Shown here in pieces: positions 53,501 to 64,000 of a stretch of 64,000 bases of DNA. The notes under the pieces were generated by a model that did not search any database, was not told the origin of the DNA, and was given only the letters and a program-made list of their open reading frames with translations. Each line of letters begins with the position of its first letter. Within the stretch, counting starts at the first letter, position 1. Source of the DNA: Streptomyces pacificus (GTDB lineage: Bacteria; Actinomycetota; Actinomycetes; Streptomycetales; Streptomycetaceae); NCBI RefSeq assembly GCF_011766325.1, contig NZ_BLLG01000001.1, positions 310,001 to 374,000 of the forward strand. The letters are read 5' to 3'. The translations under genes and the position numbers were made by a program.

Positions 53501-54540
53501 GCGGTGGCGGTGGCGGCAAGCGCAGGAAGCGCGGCCGCGGCGGTGCCGAGCACGTACACGAGCACGAGGTGGCTGTCGGGGCGCCCGGCGCCGAGACCCC
53601 GTCCAGCGGGATCGAGGAGGCCGAGGTCGAGGCCGAGGTGGCGGCGCCTGCGGCGCTGCCGGAGCCGGCCTTCGCCCCCGACGAGGAGCTCTACAGCAGC
53701 GCCGCCGAGGCCGAGGCCGCCGCCTCCCGCCGAGGCCGCCGCCGGGCCTCCCGCAAGGCGACGGCCGCCGCCGGTGCGCCGAGGCAGGCCGAGCCGGCAG
53801 CGCCGGTCGGGGCCGAGCAGGCGGAGCAGGTGCCGGCTGCGGAGACCGCCGAGGCGGCCGCCGAACCGGTGGCCGTGCCCGTCGCGGTTGAGGAGCCGGT
53901 CGCCACGGGCCGTACCCGCCGCCGGGCCACCCGCAAGGCGTCGGCTCCGGCCGGTTCCCCCAAGGGCAGCGAGTCGGCCGAGATCGTGACCGAGACCGCG
54001 GAGACGGCCCGGACCGCGGAGGCGGTGACCGAGACCGCTGAGGTCCCGGTCGGGGCGCCCGCTGCCGCGACCCCGGAGGCCGCGGTCGAGCAGCTCCCTG
54101 CCGCCGCTCCGCCGCGGGCCCGTCGCCGGGTGACCCGCAAGGTCACCGCCCCGGCGGGCTCGCCGTCCGGCGCGGAGGACGCCGCGGCGGTCGTCGTGGT
54201 CGCCGCCCCCCAGGAGTCCGAGGCGGAGGCCGCCCCGGCACCCTCCGAGGAGGCCGCTGAGGACCAGGTGGAGGCCCCGGCCAAGAAGACGGCCCGTAAG
54301 ACCGCCAAGAAGGCCACGGCGAAGAAGGCGGCAACGAAGAAGACGGCGGCCACGAAGACGACCGCGGCCAAGAAGGCCACGGCGAAGAAGGCAGCCACGA
54401 AGAAGACGGCGGCCACGAAGACCACCGCGGCCAAGAAGGCGACGGTCAAGAAGGCGGCCACGAAGAAGACGGCTGCCAAGAAGACCGCCGCCGCGGAGCA
54501 GCAGAGCCCGCCGACCGTGTCGGCTTCGACGGAGAGCTGA
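50521..54540 (+). CDS. rne: Ribonuclease E/G family endoribonuclease (large Streptomyces type)
   Basis: 1339 residues, central to mRNA decay and rRNA/tRNA processing. The catalytic core is in the middle (about 581-985): S1 domain (STSYVGNVYLGKVQNVLPS), 5'-sensor region, DNase I-like metal site (VVDVNTGKFTG, VIDFIDM) and Zn-link CVHCNGRG (about 974). It is flanked by long disordered arms. The N-arm (1-580) has Ala/Glu-rich and Arg-rich blocks, and the C-arm ends in a histone-like Lys/Ala/Thr tail (about 1255-1325). A motif of the form RxRRRATRKxxAPAGSP recurs in both arms (near residues 79, 148, 202 and 1070, 1129, 1199). ATG 50521 with GGGAGA upstream. Strong terminator after the stop. Confidence 0.96.
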   Translation: MLEPKDPGTTGDTEENDSSTPSDTLPPRRRRRAASRPAGPPAGSAQVETVADVTATGSAAIPSAEDAAAGGAVEASAPRARRRATRKVAAPAGSPDPIEAVTEPASAGAPATPPAAAHAAGAVAADEDIEEGAVSETAAETGPAEEPVRRTRRRATAPAGAPQAAGAAEEGGESAGAVAGAAEPVAVEASAAGEVAEEAPRVRTRRRATRRAVAPAAAPEAAGEDESATGESLPADTVARIAADEAEVEAAEKAATRGRTRRRAAAERAAVTPARDGRADQDERADEERAESEARGGGTATARGERGGRPGPSARGRRAGRPAVAVFQAPVFTEPVFQTPETAAAAAAAAAAGEGDGDEEAVEIEIPAATGAQRRRRRRRGESAPAVEAVESEPADEAEVESDEPEPEAAGDTGDPDDSDDYEGRPSRRRRRGGRRRRRGEPADAGDAGTDEEPEDEARAEEEPEPEGDEEDQEDQEDQEATTPSVAGTSSSRRRRRRRRRSGDGDGPEPGADEPERTVVKVREPRPKAEPSDEVQSIKGSTRLEAKKQRRREGREQGRRRVPIITEAEFLARREAVERVMVVRQHGDRTQIGVLEDNVLVEHYVNKEQSTSYVGNVYLGKVQNVLPSMEAAFVDIGKGRNAVLYAGEVNFEALGLSNGPRRIESALKSGQSVLVQVTKDPIGHKGARLTSQVSLPGRYLVYVPEGSMTGISRKLPDTERARLKTILKKIVPEDAGVIVRTAAEGASEDELRRDVERLQAQWEEIRKKAKNGNAPTLLYGEPDMTVRVVRDIFNEDFSKVIVSGDEAWGTVHGYVSHVAPDLADRLQRWTSETDVFAVHRIDEQLMKALDRKVWLPSGGSLVIDKTEAMVVVDVNTGKFTGQGGNLEETVTRNNLEAAEEIVRQLRLRDLGGIVVIDFIDMVLESNRDLVLRRLLECLGRDRTKHQVAEVTSLGLVQMTRKRVGQGLLESFSETCVHCNGRGVIVHMEQPTAAGGGGGGKRRKRGRGGAEHVHEHEVAVGAPGAETPSSGIEEAEVEAEVAAPAALPEPAFAPDEELYSSAAEAEAAASRRGRRRASRKATAAAGAPRQAEPAAPVGAEQAEQVPAAETAEAAAEPVAVPVAVEEPVATGRTRRRATRKASAPAGSPKGSESAEIVTETAETARTAEAVTETAEVPVGAPAAATPEAAVEQLPAAAPPRARRRVTRKVTAPAGSPSGAEDAAAVVVVAAPQESEAEAAPAPSEEAAEDQVEAPAKKTARKTAKKATAKKAATKKTAATKTTAAKKATAKKAATKKTAATKTTAAKKATVKKAATKKTAAKKTAAAEQQSPPTVSASTES

Positions 54541-54873
54541 ACAATCCATGGCCGGTGGTTGAATGTTCGTGTCCCGCCCCCGCGGACTCGGGGGCGGGAC
54601 ACGTCATTTGTTTCGAAATTGATGCCTGAGCCCGTAAACAGGCCGGGAATTGCCTGAAAAATCCCTGATAATGTGACGGCGGTCGCTGCCGTGCCGTGGA
54701 CCCACCCGGAGACTGCGGCCGGTGACCGGCCCGGTTGGGGGACTGACCGGTCCCAGCATTCCTCGGTAGGGCGCCGGCCATCGTGCCGGAGGGGTTCGTG
54801 CGGCCCGTGGGCGCCCCGCAGACCCCTGACCTCTGCCACAAAGAGCTCTCGCGGTGTTCAAGGAGGACGTCCA
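54541..54873. other. rne terminator and promoter region of the sugar operon
   Basis: After the terminator (54569-54602), bases 54603-54675 are distinctly AT-rich, with GGAATT (54646) and TAATGT (54669) as possible -35 and -10 elements 17 bp apart. That gives a leader of about 190 nt before the DegT gene. No gene seen. Confidence 0.4.
54569..54602 (+). terminator. Strong terminator of rne
   Basis: A 14-bp perfect stem (GTGTCCCGCCCCCG at 54569-54582 with its complement at 54589-54602), a 6-nt loop and a T-rich stretch after it. Confidence 0.85.
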
Positions 54874-55992
54874 ATGCCGAGCAGCAACGCGCAGCCCATC
54901 CCCGCTGCCCGTCCGGTCATCGGTGAAGAGGAGATCGAGGCGGCTGTACGCGTGCTGCGCAGCGGCCGGGTGGTCCAGGGCCCCGAGGTGGCCGCGTTCG
55001 AGGAGGGCTTCTCGGAGCTGGTGGCCGGACGGCACTGCGTGGCCGTCAACTCCGGTACCTCCGCGCTGCACCTCCTTCTGATGGCTCTCGGTATCGGTCC
55101 GGGTGACGAGGTGATCGTCCCGTCGTTCTCGTTCGCCGCTTCGGCGAACTCGGTCCGCCTGGTCGGTGCCGACGTCGTCTTCGCCGACATCGACCCGGAC
55201 ACCTACTGCCTCTCCCCGGGCGCCGCAGAGGCCGCGATCACCCCGCGCACCGCCGCGATCATGCCGGTGCACCTGTACGGCCATCCGGCCGCGATGGACC
55301 GGATCACGGCGATCGCCGACCGGCACAAGCTGGCCGTCGTCGAGGACGCCTGCCAGGCGCATGCGGCCGCGCTGCACGGCACCCCGGTCGGCGCCTTCGG
55401 CTCCGGCGGAACGTTCAGCTTCTACCCGACCAAGAACATGCACAGCCTCGAGGGCGGCCTGGTCTCCACCGCCGACGCCGAGATCGCCCGCACTCTCCGC
55501 CTGCTGCGCAACCAGGGCATGGAGCAGCGGTACGCGAACGAGATCGTCGGCGCCAACGTGCGCATGACGGACGTCTCCGCGGCCGTCGGCCGCGTCCAGC
55601 TCGCCAAGCTGCCCGGCTGGACCGACCGGCGCATCGCCAACGCCGCGTACCTCTCCGAGAACATCACCGCGGCGAACGTGGTGACGCCGGTCGTCGCCGA
55701 GGGCGCACGCCACATCTACCACCAGTACACGGTCCGGGTCCGCGGCGACCGCGACGCCGCCATGGCGAAGCTCACCGAGGCGGGCGTCGGCAACGCCGTC
55801 TACTACCCGACGCCGATCCACCGGCTGAAGCCGTACTGGGAGCCGGACCAGAAGGCGGGCCGCCACTGGGACCTGCCCGAGACCGAGCGGGCGGCGGCCG
55901 AGGTCGTGTCGCTGCCCGTGCACCCCTCGCTGACCGAGGGCGACCTGGAGCGCATCGCCACCGCCGTGAACGCGCTGGGAGAGGGCCTGTGA
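54874..55992 (+). CDS. DegT/DnrJ/EryC1/StrS family sugar aminotransferase
   Basis: A 372-residue PLP enzyme that aminates a keto group on a nucleotide sugar. Visible: CVAVNSGTSALHLLLMAL (cofactor phosphate site), VIVPSFSFAASANSV, VVEDACQAHAA (PLP ring Asp) and the Schiff-base Lys in SFYPTKNMHSLEGG; YYPTPIHRLKPYW is the substrate loop. ATG with AAGGAGG 7 nt upstream. First of five coupled genes; its stop overlaps the next GTG (GTGA). With the following Gfo/Idh dehydrogenase it resembles the WbpE step that installs a 3-amino group on a UDP-sugar uronic acid. C3 versus C4 specificity cannot be read from sequence. Confidence 0.92.
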   Translation: MPSSNAQPIPAARPVIGEEEIEAAVRVLRSGRVVQGPEVAAFEEGFSELVAGRHCVAVNSGTSALHLLLMALGIGPGDEVIVPSFSFAASANSVRLVGADVVFADIDPDTYCLSPGAAEAAITPRTAAIMPVHLYGHPAAMDRITAIADRHKLAVVEDACQAHAAALHGTPVGAFGSGGTFSFYPTKNMHSLEGGLVSTADAEIARTLRLLRNQGMEQRYANEIVGANVRMTDVSAAVGRVQLAKLPGWTDRRIANAAYLSENITAANVVTPVVAEGARHIYHQYTVRVRGDRDAAMAKLTEAGVGNAVYYPTPIHRLKPYWEPDQKAGRHWDLPETERAAAEVVSLPVHPSLTEGDLERIATAVNALGEGL

Positions 55993-57011
55993 CCGCCACC
56001 GCACTGCGGGCCGGCCTGATCGGCCTGGGCTCCATGGGGCGCCACCACGCCCGCGTACTGGCCGGGCTCGACGGCGTCGAACTCGTCGCCGTCGTGGACC
56101 CCATGGGGGACAAGAACGGCTGGGCGCAGAACGCACCCGTGCTGTCCACCGTCGACGAGCTGATCGCGCTCGGCATCGACTACGCCGTCGTGGCCTGCCC
56201 GACCGCACTGCATGAGGAAGTCGGCCTGAAGCTGGCCGAAGCCGGCACCGGCGCGCTGATCGAGAAGCCGGTCGCCGACACCGTCGAGGGCGCCCGCCGG
56301 CTGGTCGAGGCCTTCGAGAGCCGCGGCCTGGTGGCCGGCGTGGGCCACATCGAGCGCTGCAACCCCGCCCTGCGCAGCCTGCGCGCCCGGTTGGAGGCCG
56401 GCGAGCTCGGGGACGTGTTCCAGGTCGTGACCCGCCGCCAGGGCCCCTTCCCGCACCGCATCGCCGACGTCGGCGTGGTCAAGGACCTCGCCACCCACGA
56501 CATCGACCTGACGGCCTGGGTCACCGGCCAGCAGTACACGTCGATCGCGGCGCACACCGTCTCCAAGTCGGGCCGCCCGCACGAGGACATGGTCTCGGCC
56601 GTCGGCAAGCTCTCCGACGGCACGATGGTCAGCCACCTCGTCAACTGGCTGAGCCCGCTCAAGGAGCGCTTCACCTCGGTCACCGGAGAGCGCGGCTGCT
56701 TCATCGCCGACACCCTCACCGCGGACCTGACGTTCTACTCGAACGCGGCCGTGACGACCGAGTGGGAGGCCCTCCAGGCCTTCCGCGGCGTCTCCGAGGG
56801 AGACATGATCCGCTACGCGATCCCGAAGCGCGAACCGCTCCTCGTCGAGCACGAGCTGTTCCGGGACGCGGTGCTCGGCAAGTCCAAGGACATCTGCACG
56901 CTGCGCCAGGGCCTGCGGACGGTCGAGGTCGCCGCCGCAGTTATCGAGTCCGCGTCGAGCGGGGCCACCGTGGCCGTGGAGAGAGAGGCGGATACGCCGG
57001 ATGGAACCTGA
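55989..57011 (+). CDS. Gfo/Idh/MocA family oxidoreductase (sugar dehydrogenase, WbpB-like)
   Basis: 340 residues. The N-terminal Rossmann fold GLIGLGSMGRHHARVLAGL binds NAD(P). LIEKPVADTVEGARRLVEAF carries the EKP motif typical of the family, and GHIERCNPALRSLRARLEAG, VKDLATHDIDLTAWVTG and SHLVNWLSPLKERF lie in the substrate domain. The GTG start overlaps the DegT stop by 4 nt, and the 3' end overlaps the next gene by 11 nt. Beside a DegT aminotransferase the likely role is oxidation of a UDP-sugar C3 hydroxyl to a ketone, as WbpB does for WbpE; this is inference from pairing. Confidence 0.9.
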   Translation: MTATALRAGLIGLGSMGRHHARVLAGLDGVELVAVVDPMGDKNGWAQNAPVLSTVDELIALGIDYAVVACPTALHEEVGLKLAEAGTGALIEKPVADTVEGARRLVEAFESRGLVAGVGHIERCNPALRSLRARLEAGELGDVFQVVTRRQGPFPHRIADVGVVKDLATHDIDLTAWVTGQQYTSIAAHTVSKSGRPHEDMVSAVGKLSDGTMVSHLVNWLSPLKERFTSVTGERGCFIADTLTADLTFYSNAAVTTEWEALQAFRGVSEGDMIRYAIPKREPLLVEHELFRDAVLGKSKDICTLRQGLRTVEVAAAVIESASSGATVAVEREADTPDGT

Positions 57012-58596
57012 CCGTAAGCCCGGTGAGCAGGGAAGGACCCGCGGGCGTGTGGTCATGCTCGTGGACAACGGAGTGAACGGTGACTCGCGCGTCCAAAAGG
57101 AGGCGCGATCGGCGGCTGCGGCCGGCTGGGAGGTCATCCTCCTCGGCAAGTCGCCCACCAAGAAGGAGCAGTCCTGGATGCTCGGCGACGCCGAGGTCCG
57201 GCTCCTGTGGGTGCCCGGACCGTTGAAGCGCCGTCGGCACGAGTACCGCCGGGCCGTGCTGCGTGCGCCGCTGGCGTACCCGCCGGGCCCGCTCGCCGCA
57301 TACCGCAGGCAGAAGTCCAAGGCATGGCGGGTGGACCTCAACTACAGGCGCACCGTGGCCCAGCAGCGGGGTTCGGCCGCGGCCAGGCTCGGGCTGGTCG
57401 TGCCGCGGGCGGTCGCGAAGGTACAGGCCCGCTGGATAGGGCTCCGGGTCAGGCAGACGCGCAGCCTGGAGCGGCGCCGCAAGCAGATGGTCTCCCCGCT
57501 GGACCGGTTCACGACGGCCTTCTGGCTGAAGGCGATGGGGGACCGGGCCTGGCGCAGGCTCGACCCGTTTCTCTGGGACCTCGAACTGGCGTACGGGAAG
57601 GTCATCGACGAGCTTCAGCCTGATCTGATACACGCCAATGACTTCCGCATGCTCGGTGTGGGCGCCCGTGCCGCACTCAGAGCCCGTGCCGCGCGCCGCC
57701 ACGTCAAATTGGTCTGGGACGCCCACGAACTGGTGTCGGGCATCAAGCCATGGGATCCGCATCCCCGTTGGCACGTCGCCCAGATCGCGCACGAGCGCGA
57801 GTACTCCAAGCACGCCGACGCCGTGGTGACCGTGTCGGACACCCTTGCGGACATGCTGGCCGAGGCTCATGGCCTCGACGAGAAGCCGTCGGTGGTGTTG
57901 AACGCCCCCGAGGGGGAGACGTCGCCCGAGCATGCGGTGGAGCCGGTGCCCGACCTGCGCGAGCTGTGCGGCATCGGCCAGGAGGTGCCTCTTGCCGTCT
58001 ACAGTGGTGCGGCGGCGCCGCAGCGCGGTCTCGACATCATGGTCGAGTCGCTGCCCCAGTTGCCCGGGACGCATGTGGCGTTCGTCGTTCTGCGTCCCGA
58101 GTCCAAGTACATGACGGAACTCGCGCAGCGTGCGGAGGAGCTGGGCGTCCGCGAGCGGCTGCACATACTGCCCTATGTGCCGCACTACCAGGTTGTCCCT
58201 TTCCTTGCGGCGGCCGATATCGGTGTGATCCCGATCCATCACTGGCCGAACCACGAGATCGCTCTGATCACCAAGTTCTTCGAGTACTCGCACGCGCGAC
58301 TGCCCTTCGTCGTCAGCGATGTGAAGACGATGAGCGCGATGGTGCGGCAGACCGGCCAGGGCGAGGTCTTCGAGGCCGAGAACGTGCAGGACTACGTCCG
58401 GGCGGTCGGGGCCGTGCTCGCCGATCCTCGGAGGTACCGCGACGCGTACACTCCCGAGCTGTTGAAGGAGTGGACCTGGGAGGCCCAGGCGGAAACCCTG
58501 GACCGTCTGTACACGCGCCTGCTGCCGGGCAGTGAGCGCCGCCAGGCCGCCGCGGTTTCCGAAGCTCCGCAACTCCCGGACAGGGCGGGTGTATGA
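57001..58596 (+). CDS. Glycosyltransferase family 4 (GT-B fold)
   Basis: 531 residues. N-terminal domain starts VVMLVDNGVNGDSRVQKEA, with a basic insert (about 70-170, rich in Arg) likely to bind the membrane surface. LIHANDFRMLGVGARAALRA and LVWDAHELVSGI are typical GT4 acceptor-side motifs. The C-terminal nucleotide-sugar domain has LAVYSGAAAPQRGLDIMVE and a Glu-containing KFFEYSHARLPFVVSDV (E-x7-E type). Overlaps the dehydrogenase by 11 nt and the next GT by 4 nt (ATGA), so it is translationally coupled. Donor and acceptor unknown; probably transfers a sugar to a lipid-linked cell-surface polymer. Confidence 0.9.
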   Translation: MEPDRKPGEQGRTRGRVVMLVDNGVNGDSRVQKEARSAAAAGWEVILLGKSPTKKEQSWMLGDAEVRLLWVPGPLKRRRHEYRRAVLRAPLAYPPGPLAAYRRQKSKAWRVDLNYRRTVAQQRGSAAARLGLVVPRAVAKVQARWIGLRVRQTRSLERRRKQMVSPLDRFTTAFWLKAMGDRAWRRLDPFLWDLELAYGKVIDELQPDLIHANDFRMLGVGARAALRARAARRHVKLVWDAHELVSGIKPWDPHPRWHVAQIAHEREYSKHADAVVTVSDTLADMLAEAHGLDEKPSVVLNAPEGETSPEHAVEPVPDLRELCGIGQEVPLAVYSGAAAPQRGLDIMVESLPQLPGTHVAFVVLRPESKYMTELAQRAEELGVRERLHILPYVPHYQVVPFLAAADIGVIPIHHWPNHEIALITKFFEYSHARLPFVVSDVKTMSAMVRQTGQGEVFEAENVQDYVRAVGAVLADPRRYRDAYTPELLKEWTWEAQAETLDRLYTRLLPGSERRQAAAVSEAPQLPDRAGV

Positions 58597-60218
58597 CGCC
58601 GACCCCTGACGTCACCGTCGTCGTGGCCGTCTACAACACGATGCCCTATCTCACCGAGTGCCTCGAGTCGCTGGTGAACCAGAGCATCGGTGTGGACCGG
58701 CTGGAGGTGGTGGCCGTCGACGACGGCTCGACGGATGAGAGCGGTAGGGAACTCGACCGCTTCGCGGAGCGCTACCCCGGCACCGTGAAGGTGATACACC
58801 AGGCCAACTCCGGCGGCCCGGCCGCGCCCAGCAACCGGGCCCTGGAGGCGGCCACCGGCCGCTACGTCTACTTCGTCGGCTCCGACGACCGCCTCGGCGA
58901 GGACGCGCTCCGGCGCATGGTGGCCTGCGCCGACGAGCACGGCTCCGATGTCGTCGTGGGCAAGATGGTCGGTACCAACGGCCGCTATGTCCACCAGGCG
59001 CTCTACAGCAAGAGCGACCCGGACGTCAGCCTGTACGGCTCCGCGCTGCCCTTCACCCTGGCCAACACCAAGCTGTTCCGGCGACAACTGGTCGAGCAGC
59101 ACAAGCTGCGCTTCCCGGAGGACCTTCCGGTGGGCAGCGACCAGCCGTTCACGATCGAGGCCTGTGTCCGGGCGCGGAAGATCTCGGTCCTCGCGGACTA
59201 CACGTACTACTACGCGGTGAAGCGCGGCGACGCGAGCAACATCACCTACCGGGCGGGCCATCTGGAGAGGTTGCGCTGCGTTGCCCAGATCATGCGGCAC
59301 ACGGCCGGTCTCATCGAGGCGGGGCCCCGGCGTGACGCGGTGTTCAAGCGGCACTTCACCTGGGAACTCGCCAAACTCGTCCAGGACGACTTCCCGGCCC
59401 TCGACCGGGAGACGCGGATCCAGGTCTGCGCCGGCATCGCCGCCCTCAGCGACGACTACTTCACCGAGGCGCTCCGCGACGCGATGGACGTCAGGCGGCG
59501 GGTGCGGATCGCGCTGGCCCAGCGCGGCGCCGTCGCCGAACTGGTCCGCGCCATCGAGGAGGAGGCCGCCGCCGGACCCCCTTCCCTGCTGCTGGAGGAC
59601 GGCCGGGCGTTCCTTCGCTACCCCGGGTTCCGCGACCCGGCCCTGGCGCTGCCCGACCGGCTGTACGAGGTGATCGGCGAGGCCGTGCCGAAACAGCTCG
59701 CCGGCGGCACCGGGCTGGTCTCGGCGCGGTGGGAGCGGCAGGGCCGGGACCTGACCGCCGTCCTCTCGGTCCGCGTCCCCGTCACGGGCGACACGGACCA
59801 CGCCGTCGTTCGTCTCGCGGACAAGGCGATGCCGAAGAGCGCCGACAAGCCGGGGGCCCGCAGGCTGCCCACGGGCACCGGACTGCCCGCGCCGGCGGGG
59901 GAGCTGAGCCGCAGCACCACCGGCGACGGCACCGGGACGGTGCTCACCGCGCGCATCCCCATCGAGCCCGTCAGGGCGAAACTCGGCGTCCGGGTCTATC
60001 TGGACGTGGCGGGCTCGACGTACGAGGTCCCGGTGAGAACCCTCGACCGGCCGCTGCCGCTGGCCCGGCGCTGGCGGGAGAGGGTCCCGTACCGTGTCTC
60101 CGCCAACGCCAATGCCAAGGGACGGCTCGTCATCACCACGGCCCCGCTCTGGGAGTCCCCGCCGTCCGGCGGGGGCGGCCGGCTGCGCCACCTGATGTCC
60201 CGTGTGAAGAGGAAATGA
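58593..60218 (+). CDS. Glycosyltransferase family 2 with C-terminal accessory domain
   Basis: 541 residues. GT-A catalytic domain: VTVVVAVYNTMPYLTECLESL, VVAVDDGSTDESG and the metal-binding YFVGSDDRLGEDAL; the DLPVGSDQPFTIEAC region supplies the base. After residue about 320 comes an all-beta C-terminal part (LTAVLSVRVPVTGD ... VRVYLDVAGSTYEVPVRTL), an arrangement like the wall-teichoic-acid GT TarS, which suggests a polymer acceptor. ATGA overlap with the previous gene and 4 nt before the next. Part of the same operon. Confidence 0.9.
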   Translation: MTPTPDVTVVVAVYNTMPYLTECLESLVNQSIGVDRLEVVAVDDGSTDESGRELDRFAERYPGTVKVIHQANSGGPAAPSNRALEAATGRYVYFVGSDDRLGEDALRRMVACADEHGSDVVVGKMVGTNGRYVHQALYSKSDPDVSLYGSALPFTLANTKLFRRQLVEQHKLRFPEDLPVGSDQPFTIEACVRARKISVLADYTYYYAVKRGDASNITYRAGHLERLRCVAQIMRHTAGLIEAGPRRDAVFKRHFTWELAKLVQDDFPALDRETRIQVCAGIAALSDDYFTEALRDAMDVRRRVRIALAQRGAVAELVRAIEEEAAAGPPSLLLEDGRAFLRYPGFRDPALALPDRLYEVIGEAVPKQLAGGTGLVSARWERQGRDLTAVLSVRVPVTGDTDHAVVRLADKAMPKSADKPGARRLPTGTGLPAPAGELSRSTTGDGTGTVLTARIPIEPVRAKLGVRVYLDVAGSTYEVPVRTLDRPLPLARRWRERVPYRVSANANAKGRLVITTAPLWESPPSGGGGRLRHLMSRVKRK

Positions 60219-60222
60219 CCCG

Positions 60223-61506
60223 ATGAATATCTGTGTAGTCGCGCTCGGCAAGATCGGGCTTCCGCTCGCCGTGCAGTTCGCCGCCAAGGGCCACAAGGTC
60301 ATCGGCGCCGACGTCAACGAGAAGGTCGTGGAGCTGGTCAACGCCGGCACCGAGCCCTTCCCCGGCGAGCACGACCTGGACGTCAGGCTGAAGCAGGCCG
60401 TCGACGCCGGGCTGCTGTCCGCGACCACCGACACCGCGGCGGCCGTAGCGCGGTCCGAGGCGGTCGTGGTCGTCGTCCCGCTGTTCGTCGACGCCGAGGG
60501 CACCCCGGACTTCGGCTGGATGGACGCCGCCACCCAGGCCATCGCCAAGGGCCTCAGGCCAGGCACCCTCGTCTCGTACGAGACGACCCTGCCGGTCGGT
60601 ACCACCCGCACCCGCTGGGCGCCGATGCTGGAGCAGGGCTCGGGCCTCACCGCGGGCAAGGACTTCCCTCTGGTGTTCTCCCCGGAGCGGGTCCTCACCG
60701 GCCGGGTCTTCGCCGACCTGCGCCGCTACCCCAAGCTGGTCGGAGGCATCGACGAGGCGTCCACCCGCCGGGGCGCGGAGTTCTACGAGCAGGTCCTCGA
60801 CTTCGACGAGCGCGACGACCTCCCGCGGCCCAACGGCGTGTGGGATCTGGGCACCGCCGAGGCCTCCGAGCTCGCGAAGCTCGCCGAGACCACCTACCGC
60901 GACGTCAACATCGGCCTCGCCAACCAGTTCGCCCGGTTCGCCGACAAGAACGGCATCGACGTCAAGAAGGTCATCGAGGCCTGCAACTCGCAGCCCTACA
61001 GCCACATCCACCAGCCGGGCATCGCCGTCGGCGGCCACTGCATCCCGATCTACCCGCGGATGTACCTGTGGAACGACCCGGAGGCCACCGTCGTCCGGTC
61101 GGCCCGCGAGGCCAACGCCGCCATGCCGGAGTACGCCGTGGACCTGCTGGCCGCCGCCTACGGCGACCTGGCGGGCGCCCATGTGCTCGTGCTCGGCGCC
61201 GCCTACCGCGGCGGTGTGAAGGAGACCGCGTTCTCCGGCGTCTTCGGGACGGTGGAGGCCCTCAAGGCCCGAGGCGCGGTGCCGTTCGTCTCCGACCCGA
61301 TGTACACCGCCGAGGAACTGGCCGCGCACGGCCTCACCCCGCACCGGGGCGAGCAGGTCACCGCCGCGGTCCTCCAGGCGGACCACGCCGAGTACCGCGA
61401 GCTGGCGGCCTCCGACCTGCCCGACGTCACCGTCCTGGTCGACGGCCGCCGCACCACCGACCCGGCCCGCTGGGAAGGCGTCCGCCGCGTCGTCATCGGC
61501 GGCTGA
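60223..61506 (+). CDS. Nucleotide-sugar 6-dehydrogenase (UDP-ManNAc/UDP-GlcNAc dehydrogenase type)
   Basis: 427 residues. NAD-dependent two-step oxidation of C6 of a UDP-HexNAc to a uronic acid. N-terminal Rossmann region NICVVALGKIGLPLAVQFA, then YETTLPVGTTRTRW, FSPERVLTGRVFADL, the central helix ELAKLAETTYRDVNIGLANQ and the catalytic Cys in GIAVGGHCIPIYPRMYLW. SPERVLTG and GGHCIP are of WecC/WbpA type rather than glucose dehydrogenase type (GGPCFPKD). AGAGGAA upstream. Last gene of the operon; the 2-epimerase that could supply UDP-ManNAc is encoded convergently at 61672. Confidence 0.93.
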   Translation: MNICVVALGKIGLPLAVQFAAKGHKVIGADVNEKVVELVNAGTEPFPGEHDLDVRLKQAVDAGLLSATTDTAAAVARSEAVVVVVPLFVDAEGTPDFGWMDAATQAIAKGLRPGTLVSYETTLPVGTTRTRWAPMLEQGSGLTAGKDFPLVFSPERVLTGRVFADLRRYPKLVGGIDEASTRRGAEFYEQVLDFDERDDLPRPNGVWDLGTAEASELAKLAETTYRDVNIGLANQFARFADKNGIDVKKVIEACNSQPYSHIHQPGIAVGGHCIPIYPRMYLWNDPEATVVRSAREANAAMPEYAVDLLAAAYGDLAGAHVLVLGAAYRGGVKETAFSGVFGTVEALKARGAVPFVSDPMYTAEELAAHGLTPHRGEQVTAAVLQADHAEYRELAASDLPDVTVLVDGRRTTDPARWEGVRRVVIGG

Positions 61507-61671
61507 CGGACGGCCTGCTGGGGACCGGCCCGGCTCGGCAGGCGACGGCCCCGTCCCGCACGCCCGTGGGGCAGGGCCCGTCCCCAGAGTGGCAGGGACG
61601 GGTACGGAAACCAGAAGACCGGAGGCCGCTTCGCCCGTCGTGGCCCCGGGGGTGGTGCGGGCGCTGCGCCG

Positions 61672-62775
61672 TCAGGTGCGCCGGCCGCACCCCTTCCACT
61701 CTTCTATGATCCGGACGACGTTCCGGGCGGCCCTGCCGTCGCCGTAGGGGGTACCGGGATCGGCGGTCGGCGCGGTACGGGTCACCGTCGCGGCCCACTC
61801 CGCGGGGGAGAGGGCATACGGGTCGGGAACAAGAGCGTTCCAGCCCGTTTCGACGGTTTCCACCCACTCGGTCTCCGGGCGGACCGTGCTGCAGACGCGC
61901 CTCAGCAGGAACGCCTCCTTCTGCAACCCGCCGGAGTCCGTGACCACACCGCTGGAGGCGAGCACGGCCGCCACCAGCCCCGCATACGGCAGCGGCCGAC
62001 CGACGTGCACGCCGCCCTGGGCCAGGTTGATGCCGTGCGTCCCGGCCCGTGCGACCAGACGCGGATGGGCGAGCAGCGCCACCGGAACCGGCAGCTTCCC
62101 CAGCGATTCCAGGATCGAGGAGAGCCGGTCGGGGTCGTCCGTGTTGTCGGGGCGGTGCAGCGTCGCCAGCAGGAAGGGCCGCGAGGGGTCGATGCCCTCG
62201 GGCAGCGCCAGGGCGGAGTGTTCCCCGGCCCGTACGGCGTCCCGGACCTTCAGGCAGATGTCGACCATGACGTCGCCGGCGAGCCGCGCCCGGTGTGCGA
62301 GGCCCTCGCCCGAGAGGTGGTGCATCGCCGTCTGTGTCGGAGCGAGCAGGAGATCGGCGCAGTGGTCGGTGAGGACGCGGTTGTGCTCCTCCGGCATCCG
62401 CCGGTTGAAGGAGCGCAGGCCCGCCTCGAGGTGTGCCACCGGAAGGTGCATCTTCACCGCGGAAAGCGCGCCGGCGATCGTGCTGTTGGTGTCCCCGTAC
62501 ACGAGGACCCAGTCGGGCCTCTCGCGCTCCAGGACCGGATCCAGGGCGGAGAGCACGGAGCCGGTCTGCACACCGTGGCTGCCGGATCCCACCCCGAGGT
62601 GCACATCAGGGTCCGGGATGCCGAGCCCGTCGAAGAAGACGTCCGAGAGGTCGGCGTCGTAGTGCTGCCCGGTGTGCACGATGAGGTGCTCGTGCCCGGT
62701 CTCCGCGAACGTCGCCGCGATGGGGGCCAGTTTCACCAGTTGAGGACGGGCTCCGACGATGCTGATGACTTTCAC
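61672..62775 (-). CDS. wecB: UDP-N-acetylglucosamine 2-epimerase (non-hydrolysing)
   Basis: 367 residues. Interconverts UDP-GlcNAc and UDP-ManNAc, or acts on the diacetamido-uronic acid analogue as WbpI does. Signatures: MKVISIVGARPQLVKLAPIA, HTGQHYD, LVYGDTNSTIAGALSA, LEAGLRSFNRRMPEEHNR and VTDSGGLQKEAFLL. GTG start overlapping the end of the upstream glycosyltransferase by 4 nt, so the two are coupled. Convergent with the dehydrogenase gene across 165 bp without an obvious strong hairpin. The name wecB is used for the family; the substrate here is uncertain. Confidence 0.93.
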   Translation of the reverse strand: MKVISIVGARPQLVKLAPIAATFAETGHEHLIVHTGQHYDADLSDVFFDGLGIPDPDVHLGVGSGSHGVQTGSVLSALDPVLERERPDWVLVYGDTNSTIAGALSAVKMHLPVAHLEAGLRSFNRRMPEEHNRVLTDHCADLLLAPTQTAMHHLSGEGLAHRARLAGDVMVDICLKVRDAVRAGEHSALALPEGIDPSRPFLLATLHRPDNTDDPDRLSSILESLGKLPVPVALLAHPRLVARAGTHGINLAQGGVHVGRPLPYAGLVAAVLASSGVVTDSGGLQKEAFLLRRVCSTVRPETEWVETVETGWNALVPDPYALSPAEWAATVTRTAPTADPGTPYGDGRAARNVVRIIEEWKGCGRRT

Positions 62776-64000
62776 CGAGCACTCTTCTTCTCAGTCGGGG
62801 CCTGGGCGGGTGCGTCACGGTCGCCCTCCAGGAGCAGCTTGTCGAACTGCCGGCTCACCACGGACCAGTCCCACACCGACAGTGCGTGCTCGGCCGCCAG
62901 CTTGCCCGCCTCCCGCCACGCCTCCTCGGTGGCCGTGGTCTGCAGGACGCGCTCCGCCGCCTCCTCGGGCGAGCCGACGACCCAGTCCTCGGGGTAGAGC
63001 GTCCGTGCCCCGTTCGGCTTGCCCGCGTAGAACGGCCAGTCGCGGACGACCGGGACGGCGCCGCTCGCCGCTCCCTCCATCAGGCCCACGTGGCAGCCCT
63101 CGCGGACGGAGGAGCTGAGGATGGTGCCGATCCCGGCGAGCTCCGACGGGACGTCGTCGGTCGGACCGCGCCGGACCACCGCACCGGACTCGCTCAGCGC
63201 AGCGATTTCCTTCTCGAACGCACGGCGGTACTCGCGGGTCGCACGGCTGGTCTTCGCGTCCATGTCACCGCCGACCATGACCAGTCGGTAGCGGTCGTCG
63301 TGCCTGCGCACCCGCTCCAGGACGTCCACGGCCCAACGGGGGTCCTTGGCGACCTGGCCGACGCCGATCAGGCCCAGGTCGAAGCGCGCCTCGGCCGGCT
63401 TCGGGCGTGCGAAGGCCGTCAGGTCCATCGCGTTGTCGAGGATGTGCGTACGGGGCGCCTGCCCCCCGCGCAGCTGCGGCACGAGCGAGGTGACCAGGTC
63501 GCGGACGTGCGGCGCGACGAAGACGAGATCGTCGACCCGGGAGAAGTCCGTCATGTGGGGCCAGCGGGTGAAGGCCTCGTAGCTGTGCAGCCTGACCACG
63601 ATCCGGGTCGTGCCGGGGTCGATGGTGGTCAGTATCGGGGCGGGCCCCACGGACCAGTCCAGGAAGACCGTGTCGGCCCAGTCGAGGTACGGGCGCATCA
63701 GCCGCTCCACCTCTTCCTGGAAGTCGCTCGTGCCGCCCGACAGCCGGTCCTCCAGCATCCGGCGGCCCGCCCAGGCGATCCGCTTCAGATGCTTCGAAGC
63801 GGCCAGGTCCAGATAGCGCAGCTCGACATCGGGGTGGTTGCCGAAGTGCTCCAGGACGTGGTGGAGGAAGTTGTCGTTGGCGCTCGTCGTGACCAGCAGC
63901 CGCAGCGGGCGGTGCCCGGGTGCCCGCTCGGGCGGCGTCCTCCTGCCCTGCCCGCGGCTCAGCTCCCGCATCGTCTCCGCGCCGTGGAGCGGGGCGACGA
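62772..64000 (-). CDS. Glycosyltransferase (GT-B fold), 5' end beyond window
   Basis: At least 400 residues visible. LRLLVTTSANDNFLHHVLEHF opens a GT-B N-domain, IVVRLHSYEAFTRWPHMTDFSRVDDLVFV is the acceptor region, and the C-domain has FDLGLIGVGQVAKDPRWAVDVLERV, LVMVGGDMD and SVREGCHVGLMEGAASGAVPVV (donor-binding ExxxG-like). The first visible Met is at 63971, but the frame stays open to base 64000 and reads VAPLHGAETMRELS, so the real start may be outside. Overlaps the epimerase start by 4 nt. The donor is probably a nucleotide sugar made in this locus. Confidence 0.85.
   Translation of the reverse strand, partial: VAPLHGAETMRELSRGQGRRTPPERAPGHRPLRLLVTTSANDNFLHHVLEHFGNHPDVELRYLDLAASKHLKRIAWAGRRMLEDRLSGGTSDFQEEVERLMRPYLDWADTVFLDWSVGPAPILTTIDPGTTRIVVRLHSYEAFTRWPHMTDFSRVDDLVFVAPHVRDLVTSLVPQLRGGQAPRTHILDNAMDLTAFARPKPAEARFDLGLIGVGQVAKDPRWAVDVLERVRRHDDRYRLVMVGGDMDAKTSRATREYRRAFEKEIAALSESGAVVRRGPTDDVPSELAGIGTILSSSVREGCHVGLMEGAASGAVPVVRDWPFYAGKPNGARTLYPEDWVVGSPEEAAERVLQTTATEEAWREAGKLAAEHALSVWDWSVVSRQFDKLLLEGDRDAPAQAPTEKKSAR

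What the first reader, a model, noticed from the sequence alone, without database searches (positions are those of the whole stretch)
54874..64000. Possible diamino-uronic-acid glycopolymer locus next to rne
The locus combines a WecC/WbpA-type UDP-HexNAc 6-dehydrogenase, a Gfo/Idh/MocA oxidoreductase, a DegT aminotransferase, a WecB/WbpI-type 2-epimerase and three glycosyltransferases. In Pseudomonas the WbpA-WbpB-WbpE-WbpD-WbpI set makes UDP-2,3-diacetamido-2,3-dideoxy-mannuronic acid; four of the five activities are represented here and only the N-acetyltransferase (WbpD) is not seen, possibly beyond the right edge. Diamino-uronic acids are reported, from memory, in teichuronic acids of some actinobacteria. 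This could be a Streptomyces cell-wall polymer pathway without an assigned product.
Basis: partly seen in the sequence, partly recalled or inferred. Interest (0 to 1): 0.62.

Follow-up and report, generated by a model that had tools for sequence, protein, structure and literature searches.

The report
Streptomyces wall-polymer locus with C5-epimerase-like enzyme
This is a Streptomyces gene cluster for a cell-wall sugar polymer of a kind already known to be the docking site of bacterial toxin particles, and it carries an extra secreted enzyme gene whose relatives also turn up beside such toxin genes and in phage tail gene sets.

Summary
The missing WbpD-like gene lies 4.7 kb right of the window. 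The ten-gene locus (rne to rplU) has the place and core genes of the utr teichuronic-acid loci published in December 2025 (PMC13274773), whose S. griseus polymer is GalNAc/ManNAc3NAcA on wall teichoic acid. The 2-epimerase profile matches solved UDP-diNAc-GlcA 2-epimerases (381 bits) far better than UDP-GlcNAc 2-epimerase 1vgv (146). New here: a tenth gene, not among utrA-J, encodes a protein with a GLCE-type uronyl C5-epimerase domain (Z 24.7, five catalytic residues kept), a Tat-like N-terminus and GW/SH3-like repeats. Its family is in 16 of 392 sampled genomes of the genus; all 16 carry UtrC and 15 of 16 a linked UtrH. Copies sit in utr loci, beside umbrella-toxin genes, and between tail and endolysin genes of phages. 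I propose that it epimerises wall ManNAc3NAcA to L-GulNAc3NAcA, altering a receptor. Activity is untested; a lyase is the main rival.

The parts
54874..55992 (+). utrA: DegT-family sugar aminotransferase (P0012)
   Evidence: PF01041 410 bits; homologues at 79-97% identity in full-length utr-locus copies, 67-68% in the divergent L039; solved relatives 7b0d, DesV, perosamine synthetase, QdtB, WbpE
55989..57011 (+). utrB: Gfo/Idh sugar 3-dehydrogenase (P0002)
   Evidence: NCBIfam UDP-GlcNAc 3-dehydrogenase 194 bits, below its cut-off of 450; best solved relative 7bvj 87.5 bits, 3q2k 57.8
57001..58596 (+). extra GT4 glycosyltransferase (P0003), at a place where the S. griseus utrA-J list has none; homologues of 60-76% identity between utrB and utrC in other utr loci
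   Evidence: PF13439/PF00534
58593..60218 (+). utrC: GT2 with TarS linker domain (P0004), proposed to put the first uronic acid on ribitol phosphate
   Evidence: PF00535 100.6, PF22181 TarS_linker 40.6 bits; function from PMC13274773
60223..61506 (+). utrD: UDP-HexNAc 6-dehydrogenase (P0005)
   Evidence: TIGR03026 287.8 bits over cut-off 189.8; best solved relative 4r16 207 bits
61672..62775 (-). utrH: UDP-GlcNAc3NAcA-type 2-epimerase (P0006)
   Evidence: profile 381 bits to 8sxy, 146 to 1vgv
62772..64000 (-). GT4-like glycosyltransferase (P0011, full gene 62772-64949), likely utrF by comparison of gene order. The operon goes on right of the window, in continued numbering: GT 64946-66451 - (P0010, likely utrG), C5-epimerase-like gene 66623-68440 - (P0009), utrJ N-acetyltransferase 68715-69311 - (P0008), then rplU about 69782 +
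   Evidence: the utrF/utrG names are inference from order in loci such as L044 and L048 and the paper's text

Best explanation
The locus is a utr-type teichuronic-acid (TUA) cluster. UDP-GlcNAc is oxidised at C3 (UtrB), aminated (UtrA), N-acetylated (UtrJ), oxidised at C6 (UtrD) and 2-epimerised (UtrH) to UDP-ManNAc3NAcA. UtrC starts a chain on ribitol-phosphate wall teichoic acid and the other GTs extend it. The tenth gene encodes a Tat-exported, wall-binding, GLCE-type enzyme that acts on the finished polymer outside the membrane, most likely flipping C5 of ManNAc3NAcA residues to give L-GulNAc3NAcA and so changing a surface receptor. Shown by sequence: gene families, synteny, catalytic residues, fold and co-occurrence. 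Inferred: export route, wall binding, substrate, product, order of steps and biological effect.
For: Complete diamino-uronic gene set including the WbpD-like gene. UtrH profile: 381 bits to UDP-diNAc-GlcA 2-epimerases against 146 to 1vgv (recalled as E. coli WecB). Same place and core genes as the S. griseus locus, whose polymer was solved by NMR (PMC13274773). C5-epimerase-like protein: PF06662 64.8 bits, cut-off 23.3. Model matches human GLCE at Z 24.7, 271 residues, 3.0 A; the best other fold listed has Z 15.8. The five GLCE catalytic residues given in PMC13308652 fall, by hand count along the alignment, on E328, Y329, N342, Y390, Y401: invariant in 12 of 12 rows, kept in 48 of 55 rows, the other seven being fragments of 396 aa or less. 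C-terminal repeats resemble InlB/autolysin/S-layer teichoic-acid-binding and SH3b domains. Co-occurrence: 16 of 392 genomes have the gene and all 16 have UtrC, against 69 of 392; 15 of 16 have UtrH in the utr locus against 8 of 23 UtrC+ genomes without the gene in the 150; 16 of 16 named genomes searched, two Glycomyces included, have UtrH and UtrC homologues.
Against: No chemistry for this strain. G005 has the gene but no UtrH match at E 1e-60. Fold plus residues do not separate epimerase from lyase, and phage tail enzymes are usually depolymerases (recalled). The co-occurrence tests ignore kinship; the UtrC threshold (1e-95) was set after the score of G073 was known (at 67% identity or more it is 15 of 16 against 62 of 392); the 15 of 16 and 8 of 23 come from two overlapping samples, and G110, whose UtrH is unlinked, counts as without. 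The five changes of utr linkage on the tree may be losses as well as gains. This locus lacks utrE and any utrI-like O-acetyltransferase, and its divergent operon has another gene order (utrH next to utrD), so its second sugar is not settled. S. griseus proteins were not compared directly. The GLCE model has mean pLDDT 72.9 with residues 333-337, near the site, under 50. The wall-binding call rests on Z 7.3 at most. Tat export was read by eye and by a crude pattern, not by a predictor.
Confidence: 0.72

Rival explanations
1. The C5-epim_C protein is a TUA lyase: it takes the C5 proton but then eliminates the C4 substituent, cutting the chain. The host copies trim or turn over TUA; the phage copies are tail depolymerases.
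For: Copies lie between tail and endolysin genes in phages; ManNAc3NAcA in S. griseus TUA is substituted at O4, which suits beta-elimination; weaker fold matches include hydrolases and a lyase (1gxm, Z 13.8).
Against: Both catalytic tyrosines and the E/Y/N of GLCE are kept; the GLCE match stands about 9 Z above the next family listed.
Confidence: 0.3
2. The locus makes a GlcNAc3NAcA homopolymer like S. antibioticus and the 2-epimerase acts elsewhere.
For: The extra GT (P0003) is shared with several utr loci that lack utrH (L024, L028, L031, L032).
Against: utrH is in the same operon as two further GTs.
Confidence: 0.12
3. The polymer contains plain ManNAcA (WecB/WecC route) and the DegT, Gfo/Idh and acetyltransferase genes serve another sugar.
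For: The dehydrogenase is nearest to ManNAc-dehydrogenase models and structures; the generic wecB model passes its cut-off.
Against: The epimerase profile prefers diNAc-GlcA epimerases by over 100 bits; the genes are kept together in utr loci, whose product in S. griseus is ManNAc3NAcA.
Confidence: 0.04

Closest known systems
utrA-J teichuronic-acid locus of Streptomyces griseus (SGR_4943 region; PMC13274773)
   Same: Place beside L21/L27, TarIJ and TagF; aminotransferase, oxidase, TarS-like GT, dehydrogenase, then a divergent operon with GTs, 2-epimerase, N-acetyltransferase
   Different: No utrE 4-epimerase or utrI O-acetyltransferase in the locus; other order in the divergent operon; extra GT4 (P0003); extra C5-epimerase-like gene, which the main text of the paper does not name (its figure 3C and tables were not seen)
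Human/zebrafish heparan-sulfate D-glucuronyl C5-epimerase (GLCE; 6i02, 4pxq)
   Same: Helical catalytic fold, WYSxMAQG-like, EYP, NG, YxxxH and YHxxH motifs, five catalytic residues
   Different: 22% identity; Tat-like N-terminus and GW/SH3-like C-terminus; presumed substrate a diacetamido-mannuronic acid in a wall polymer
Pseudomonas WbpA-WbpB-WbpE-WbpD-WbpI pathway
   Same: Five matching activities and expected sugar UDP-ManNAc3NAcA
   Different: UtrB and UtrD nearest to other families; product expected in a Gram-positive wall polymer
Bermanella marisrubri D-glucuronyl C5-epimerase (as told in PMC13308652, passages)
   Same: The only bacterial enzyme of this activity that the paper knows, thought by alignment to use a GLCE-like mechanism
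   Different: Tested on O-desulfated heparin; its sequence was not compared here

Membership tests
Streptomyces utr TUA locus | Placed by rplU/rpmA with TarIJ and TagF near | tested here: met
Streptomyces utr TUA locus | Core utrA, utrB, utrC, utrD, utrJ | tested here: met
   S. griseus sequences themselves not compared
Streptomyces utr TUA locus | utrH 2-epimerase (variable in the paper) | tested here: met
   linked in 14 of 30 UtrC+ genomes of the 150
Streptomyces utr TUA locus | utrE 4-epimerase and utrI O-acetyltransferase (variable genes in the paper, not core) | tested here: not met
   neither among the ten genes
Streptomyces utr TUA locus | TUA with diacetamido-uronic acid on ribitol WTA | not testable with these tools
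   needs wall NMR
GLCE-type uronyl C5-epimerase | PF06662 domain and GLCE fold | tested here: met
   64.8 bits, cut-off 23.3; Z 24.7, 271 residues, 3.0 A
GLCE-type uronyl C5-epimerase | E499, Y500, N510, Y560, Y578 | tested here: met
GLCE-type uronyl C5-epimerase | N-terminal beta-hairpin and beta-sandwich domains | tested here: inconclusive
   model residues 1-98 and 111-128 have pLDDT under 50
GLCE-type uronyl C5-epimerase | C5 inversion of a uronic acid in a polymer | not testable with these tools
   needs enzyme assay
Wbp-type UDP-ManNAc3NAcA pathway | WbpI-type 2-epimerase and WbpD/WlbB-type acetyltransferase | tested here: met
   (3mqg as WlbB is recalled)
Wbp-type UDP-ManNAc3NAcA pathway | WbpE-type C3 aminotransferase | tested here: inconclusive
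   7b0d 345, DesV 301, perosamine synthetase 295, WbpE 275 bits
Wbp-type UDP-ManNAc3NAcA pathway | WbpB/WlbA-type and WbpA-type oxidoreductases | tested here: inconclusive
   nearer to 7bvj and to ManNAc dehydrogenases; no WbpA profile at hand

The most novel reading that the evidence does not exclude
A family of wall-targeted uronyl C5-epimerases rewrites the sugar stereochemistry of teichuronic acid in Streptomyces (D-ManNAc3NAcA to L-GulNAc3NAcA). It is a shared piece of an arms race: utr-locus copies disguise the receptor, copies beside umbrella-toxin genes protect the producer from its own lectin-guided particles by altering its own receptor, and phages carry a signal-less copy in the tail module to act on the host receptor.
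Probability: 0.3. Interest if true: 0.87.

Novelty: new variant of a known kind. Interest (0 to 1): 0.62.

Why it matters
TUA is the docking site of umbrella toxin particles in S. griseus and S. antibioticus (PMC13274773), and its diversity is told there as gene content of the biosynthetic loci. A secreted epimerase-type enzyme would add editing after synthesis, of the alginate and heparin kind, to a Gram-positive wall polymer. It would show how one backbone can display different epitopes, and its presence in toxin loci and phage tail modules gives a direct genetic test of receptor editing as immunity or attack. PMC13308652 (passages) knows only one bacterial D-glucuronyl C5-epimerase.

Tried and rejected
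Whole-protein genus searches with P0009 failed twice on the machine; its repeat-rich N-terminus was left off and P0013 worked. The phage record collection gave only one weak match, 28% identity over 35% of the query, in a Bradyrhizobium phage, and the viral structure library none at E 0.001, so phage copies rest on IMG/VR contigs and one prophage. Of the nine viral contigs, neighbours were scanned in PHROGs for L081, L084, L087 and L088 only; the gene after the C5-epimerase-like one in L081 and in L085 has no Pfam match; in L089 the gene is cut at the contig end. Rfam at gathering score found nothing in 54000-64000. C3 versus C4 amination by UtrA could not be settled. I first labelled a 383-aa protein beside utrJ as utrI; it has no Pfam match, and the label is not to be trusted. 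My ORF caller missed or merged some genes, so gene maps rest on tblastn. The Tat pattern also fires in some phage copies on RR further in; most of their called starts lie at the catalytic domain, but those of L085 and L087 lie upstream. A flippase/LCP search of the whole genome was not made, since the known polymer rides on wall teichoic acid. Paper searches: PF06662 found no paper; C5-epimerase with Streptomyces and phage found three, judged by title only; glucuronyl C5-epimerase with teichoic found one review, not read; diacetamido, guluronic, C5 epimer (two of three) found 54, of which 15 were listed and none read.
Full report
WHAT IS THERE. The window is G000:C1:310001-374000 of a 6.7 Mb draft genome. 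Right of rne lie DegT, Gfo/Idh, a GT4, a GT2 with TarS linker and a UDP-sugar dehydrogenase on the + strand, then a 2-epimerase and a GT on the - strand. A search of the own genome for hexapeptide proteins found one 5 kb past the edge, and the stretch fetched there gives three more - strand genes: a GT, a protein with a C5-epim_C domain and the acetyltransferase. Then come rplU, rpmA, obg, a GT, an IspD-SDR fusion and a TagF-like protein. The - strand operon reads utrJ, C5-epimerase-like, GT, GT, utrH.

WHAT IT IS. A Cell paper of December 2025 (PMC13274773; seen: abstract, sections 8, 9, 10, 14, 45 and passages, not figures or tables) describes the utrA-J locus of S. griseus, near L21, L27, TarIJ and TagF. 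Its polymer is a GalNAc/ManNAc3NAcA chain on ribitol teichoic acid, a receptor of umbrella toxin particles; S. antibioticus makes a GlcNAc3NAcA homopolymer. The authors call the enzyme assignment speculative. The locus here has the same place and core genes; its divergent operon has another order, with utrH next to utrD. tblastn maps of the utr loci fetched show utrA, B, C, D and J kept wherever the stretch covers them and the middle variable.

FAMILY TESTS. Profile of eight UtrH: 381 bits to UDP-2,3-diacetamido-2,3-dideoxy-GlcA 2-epimerase (8sxy), 275 to 4neq, 146 to 1vgv (recalled as E. coli WecB). UtrJ: 3mqg 154 bits, next 80 (that 3mqg is WlbB is recalled). UtrB: 7bvj 87.5, 3q2k 57.8 (names GnnA and WlbA recalled) and the NCBIfam archaeal UDP-GlcNAc 3-dehydrogenase model at 194 bits, below its cut-off. 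UtrD: 4r16 207 and Cap5O 182 bits. UtrA is unresolved. Hence two orders are open: C3 amination of UDP-GlcNAc before C6 oxidation, or the Pseudomonas order; the product is the same.

THE TENTH GENE. P0009 (605 aa) has an N-terminal twin-arginine-like stretch, a low-complexity linker, a catalytic domain and C-terminal repeats. Pfam PF06662 64.8 bits. The AlphaFold model (mean pLDDT 72.9) matches human GLCE at Z 24.7, 271 residues, 3.0 A, 22% identity; the next family listed is at 15.8. A Glycobiology 2026 paper (PMC13308652, passages only) lists GLCE catalytic residues E499, Y500, N510, Y560, Y578. Counted by hand along the HMMER alignment they fall on E328, Y329, N342, Y390, Y401, invariant in 12 of 12 rows. 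In one search, 48 of 55 rows keep all five; the other seven are fragments of 396 aa or less. The C-terminal domain folded alone (pLDDT 92.6) resembles InlB GW, autolysin, S-layer teichoic-acid-binding and SH3b modules, Z at most 7.3.

WHERE ITS RELATIVES ARE. In 150 genomes of the genus 7 carry it, in 392 genomes 16. That the genus is Streptomyces follows from G034, whose stretches match S. wuyuanensis. UtrC at E 1e-95 is in 69 of 392, and all 16 are among them (hypergeometric 1.8e-13, own genome left out 1.0e-12; no correction for kinship; the threshold was set knowing the weakest case, G073; at 67% identity or more it is 15 of 16 in 62 of 392). Fifteen of the 16 have utrH in the utr locus, G005 not, against 8 of 23 UtrC+ genomes without the gene among the 150 (Fisher 0.025 within the 150; 0.0002 if the 15 of 16 are set against the 8 of 23, which mixes two samples). 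G110, with an unlinked UtrH, counts as without. A named-genome scan gave 23 loci, among them S. wuyuanensis, S. aurantiogriseus, S. bobili, S. hilarionis, S. pilosus, S. ficellus, S. noursei, two Glycomyces and one weak marine MAG hit. One was not held; of the 16 genomes searched 16 have a UtrH homologue (68-90%) and 16 a UtrC homologue, 44-49% in Glycomyces. These overlap the 392 in part.

THREE CONTEXTS. (a) utr loci, next to utrJ in most, sometimes two copies (L060, L061, L091) or remnants (L058, L092). (b) umbrella-toxin loci: the clade of seven copies in L041, L064, L065, L067, L070/L103, L100, L101 (100/99). Six of the seven adjoining genes were scanned and all six have B_lectin, FG-GAP and trypsin matches (L070 is cut and its trypsin match is below cut-off); the seventh, L067, was not scanned. 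Five of five long neighbours scanned (L064, L065, L067, L100, L101) have 7-8 ALF repeats. Trypsin plus lectin is the UmbA make-up, and ALF repeats that of UmbC, in PMC11062931 (passages). G005, the genome without UtrH, has its copy here. Other copies lie near RHS or lectin-domain exoproteins (L036, L040, L075). (c) Phages: nine IMG/VR contigs, one holding the copy of the S. wuyuanensis prophage; one clade, 100/100. Four of four lysis candidates scanned in PHROGs just downstream (one gene further in L088) are endolysins, with distal tail, minor tail or tape-measure genes upstream in L081, L087 and L088; the prophage copy has an Amidase_2 gene next to it. On the tree the label 'in a utr locus' changes at least five times; these may be gains or losses, so independent gains are not shown. 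One row (L073) was labelled utr from contig ends, not from an unbroken stretch.

MECHANISM. Since the gene goes with UtrH more than with UtrC alone, I think that the substrate is ManNAc3NAcA in the chain, and C5 inversion would give L-GulNAc3NAcA. The two-tyrosine site favours inversion over elimination, but the phage context leaves a lyase possible (0.3). The receptor-editing role is inference.

NOVELTY. The locus is a new member of the utr kind; the added epimerase-type enzyme makes it a variant. The main text of PMC13274773 does not hold the terms C5-epim or glucuronyl, says that other epimerases vary among loci, and its figure 3C may show this gene. The main text of PMC11062931 does not hold 'epimerase'. 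Paper searches that bear on it; the held library lacks most subscription journals.

Noticed in passing
L064, L065, L067, L070, L100, L101, L041: C5-epimerase-like genes adjoin UmbA-like (trypsin plus lectin) genes (six of seven scanned), with UmbC-like (ALF repeat) genes near in five of the loci: a candidate receptor-editing immunity gene of umbrella toxin loci.
   Followed up: partly
L042, L054-L057, L081-L089: Phage contigs and one prophage of S. wuyuanensis carry C5-epimerase-like genes, where scanned between tail and endolysin genes, forming one clade.
   Followed up: partly
G012, G025, G033, G039, G041, G042, G046, G054, G071, G074, G083, G091, G101, G133, G134: In 15 of 150 genomes a UtrJ homologue (75-80%) lies 4-11 kb from a 41-44% UtrH homologue, with no UtrC match over 43%: seemingly a second, different diamino-uronic acid cluster.
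   Followed up: no
L058, L074, L079, L092, L104, L105: Truncated or stop-bearing remnants of C5-epimerase-like genes, some in utr loci beside intact copies, suggest gain and loss.
   Followed up: no
L045:2617-3765 and relatives in L044, L068, L079, L093, L095-L098: A 383-aa protein without a Pfam match, between utrJ and utrH in several utr loci; the S. griseus paper puts an UmbA orthologue next to utrJ, so it may be lectin-like.
   Followed up: no
L062, L063: Two Glycomyces genomes have a C5-epimerase-like gene with no utr gene within about 10 kb, yet carry UtrC and UtrH homologues elsewhere, so the pairing is not confined to Streptomyces.
   Followed up: partly
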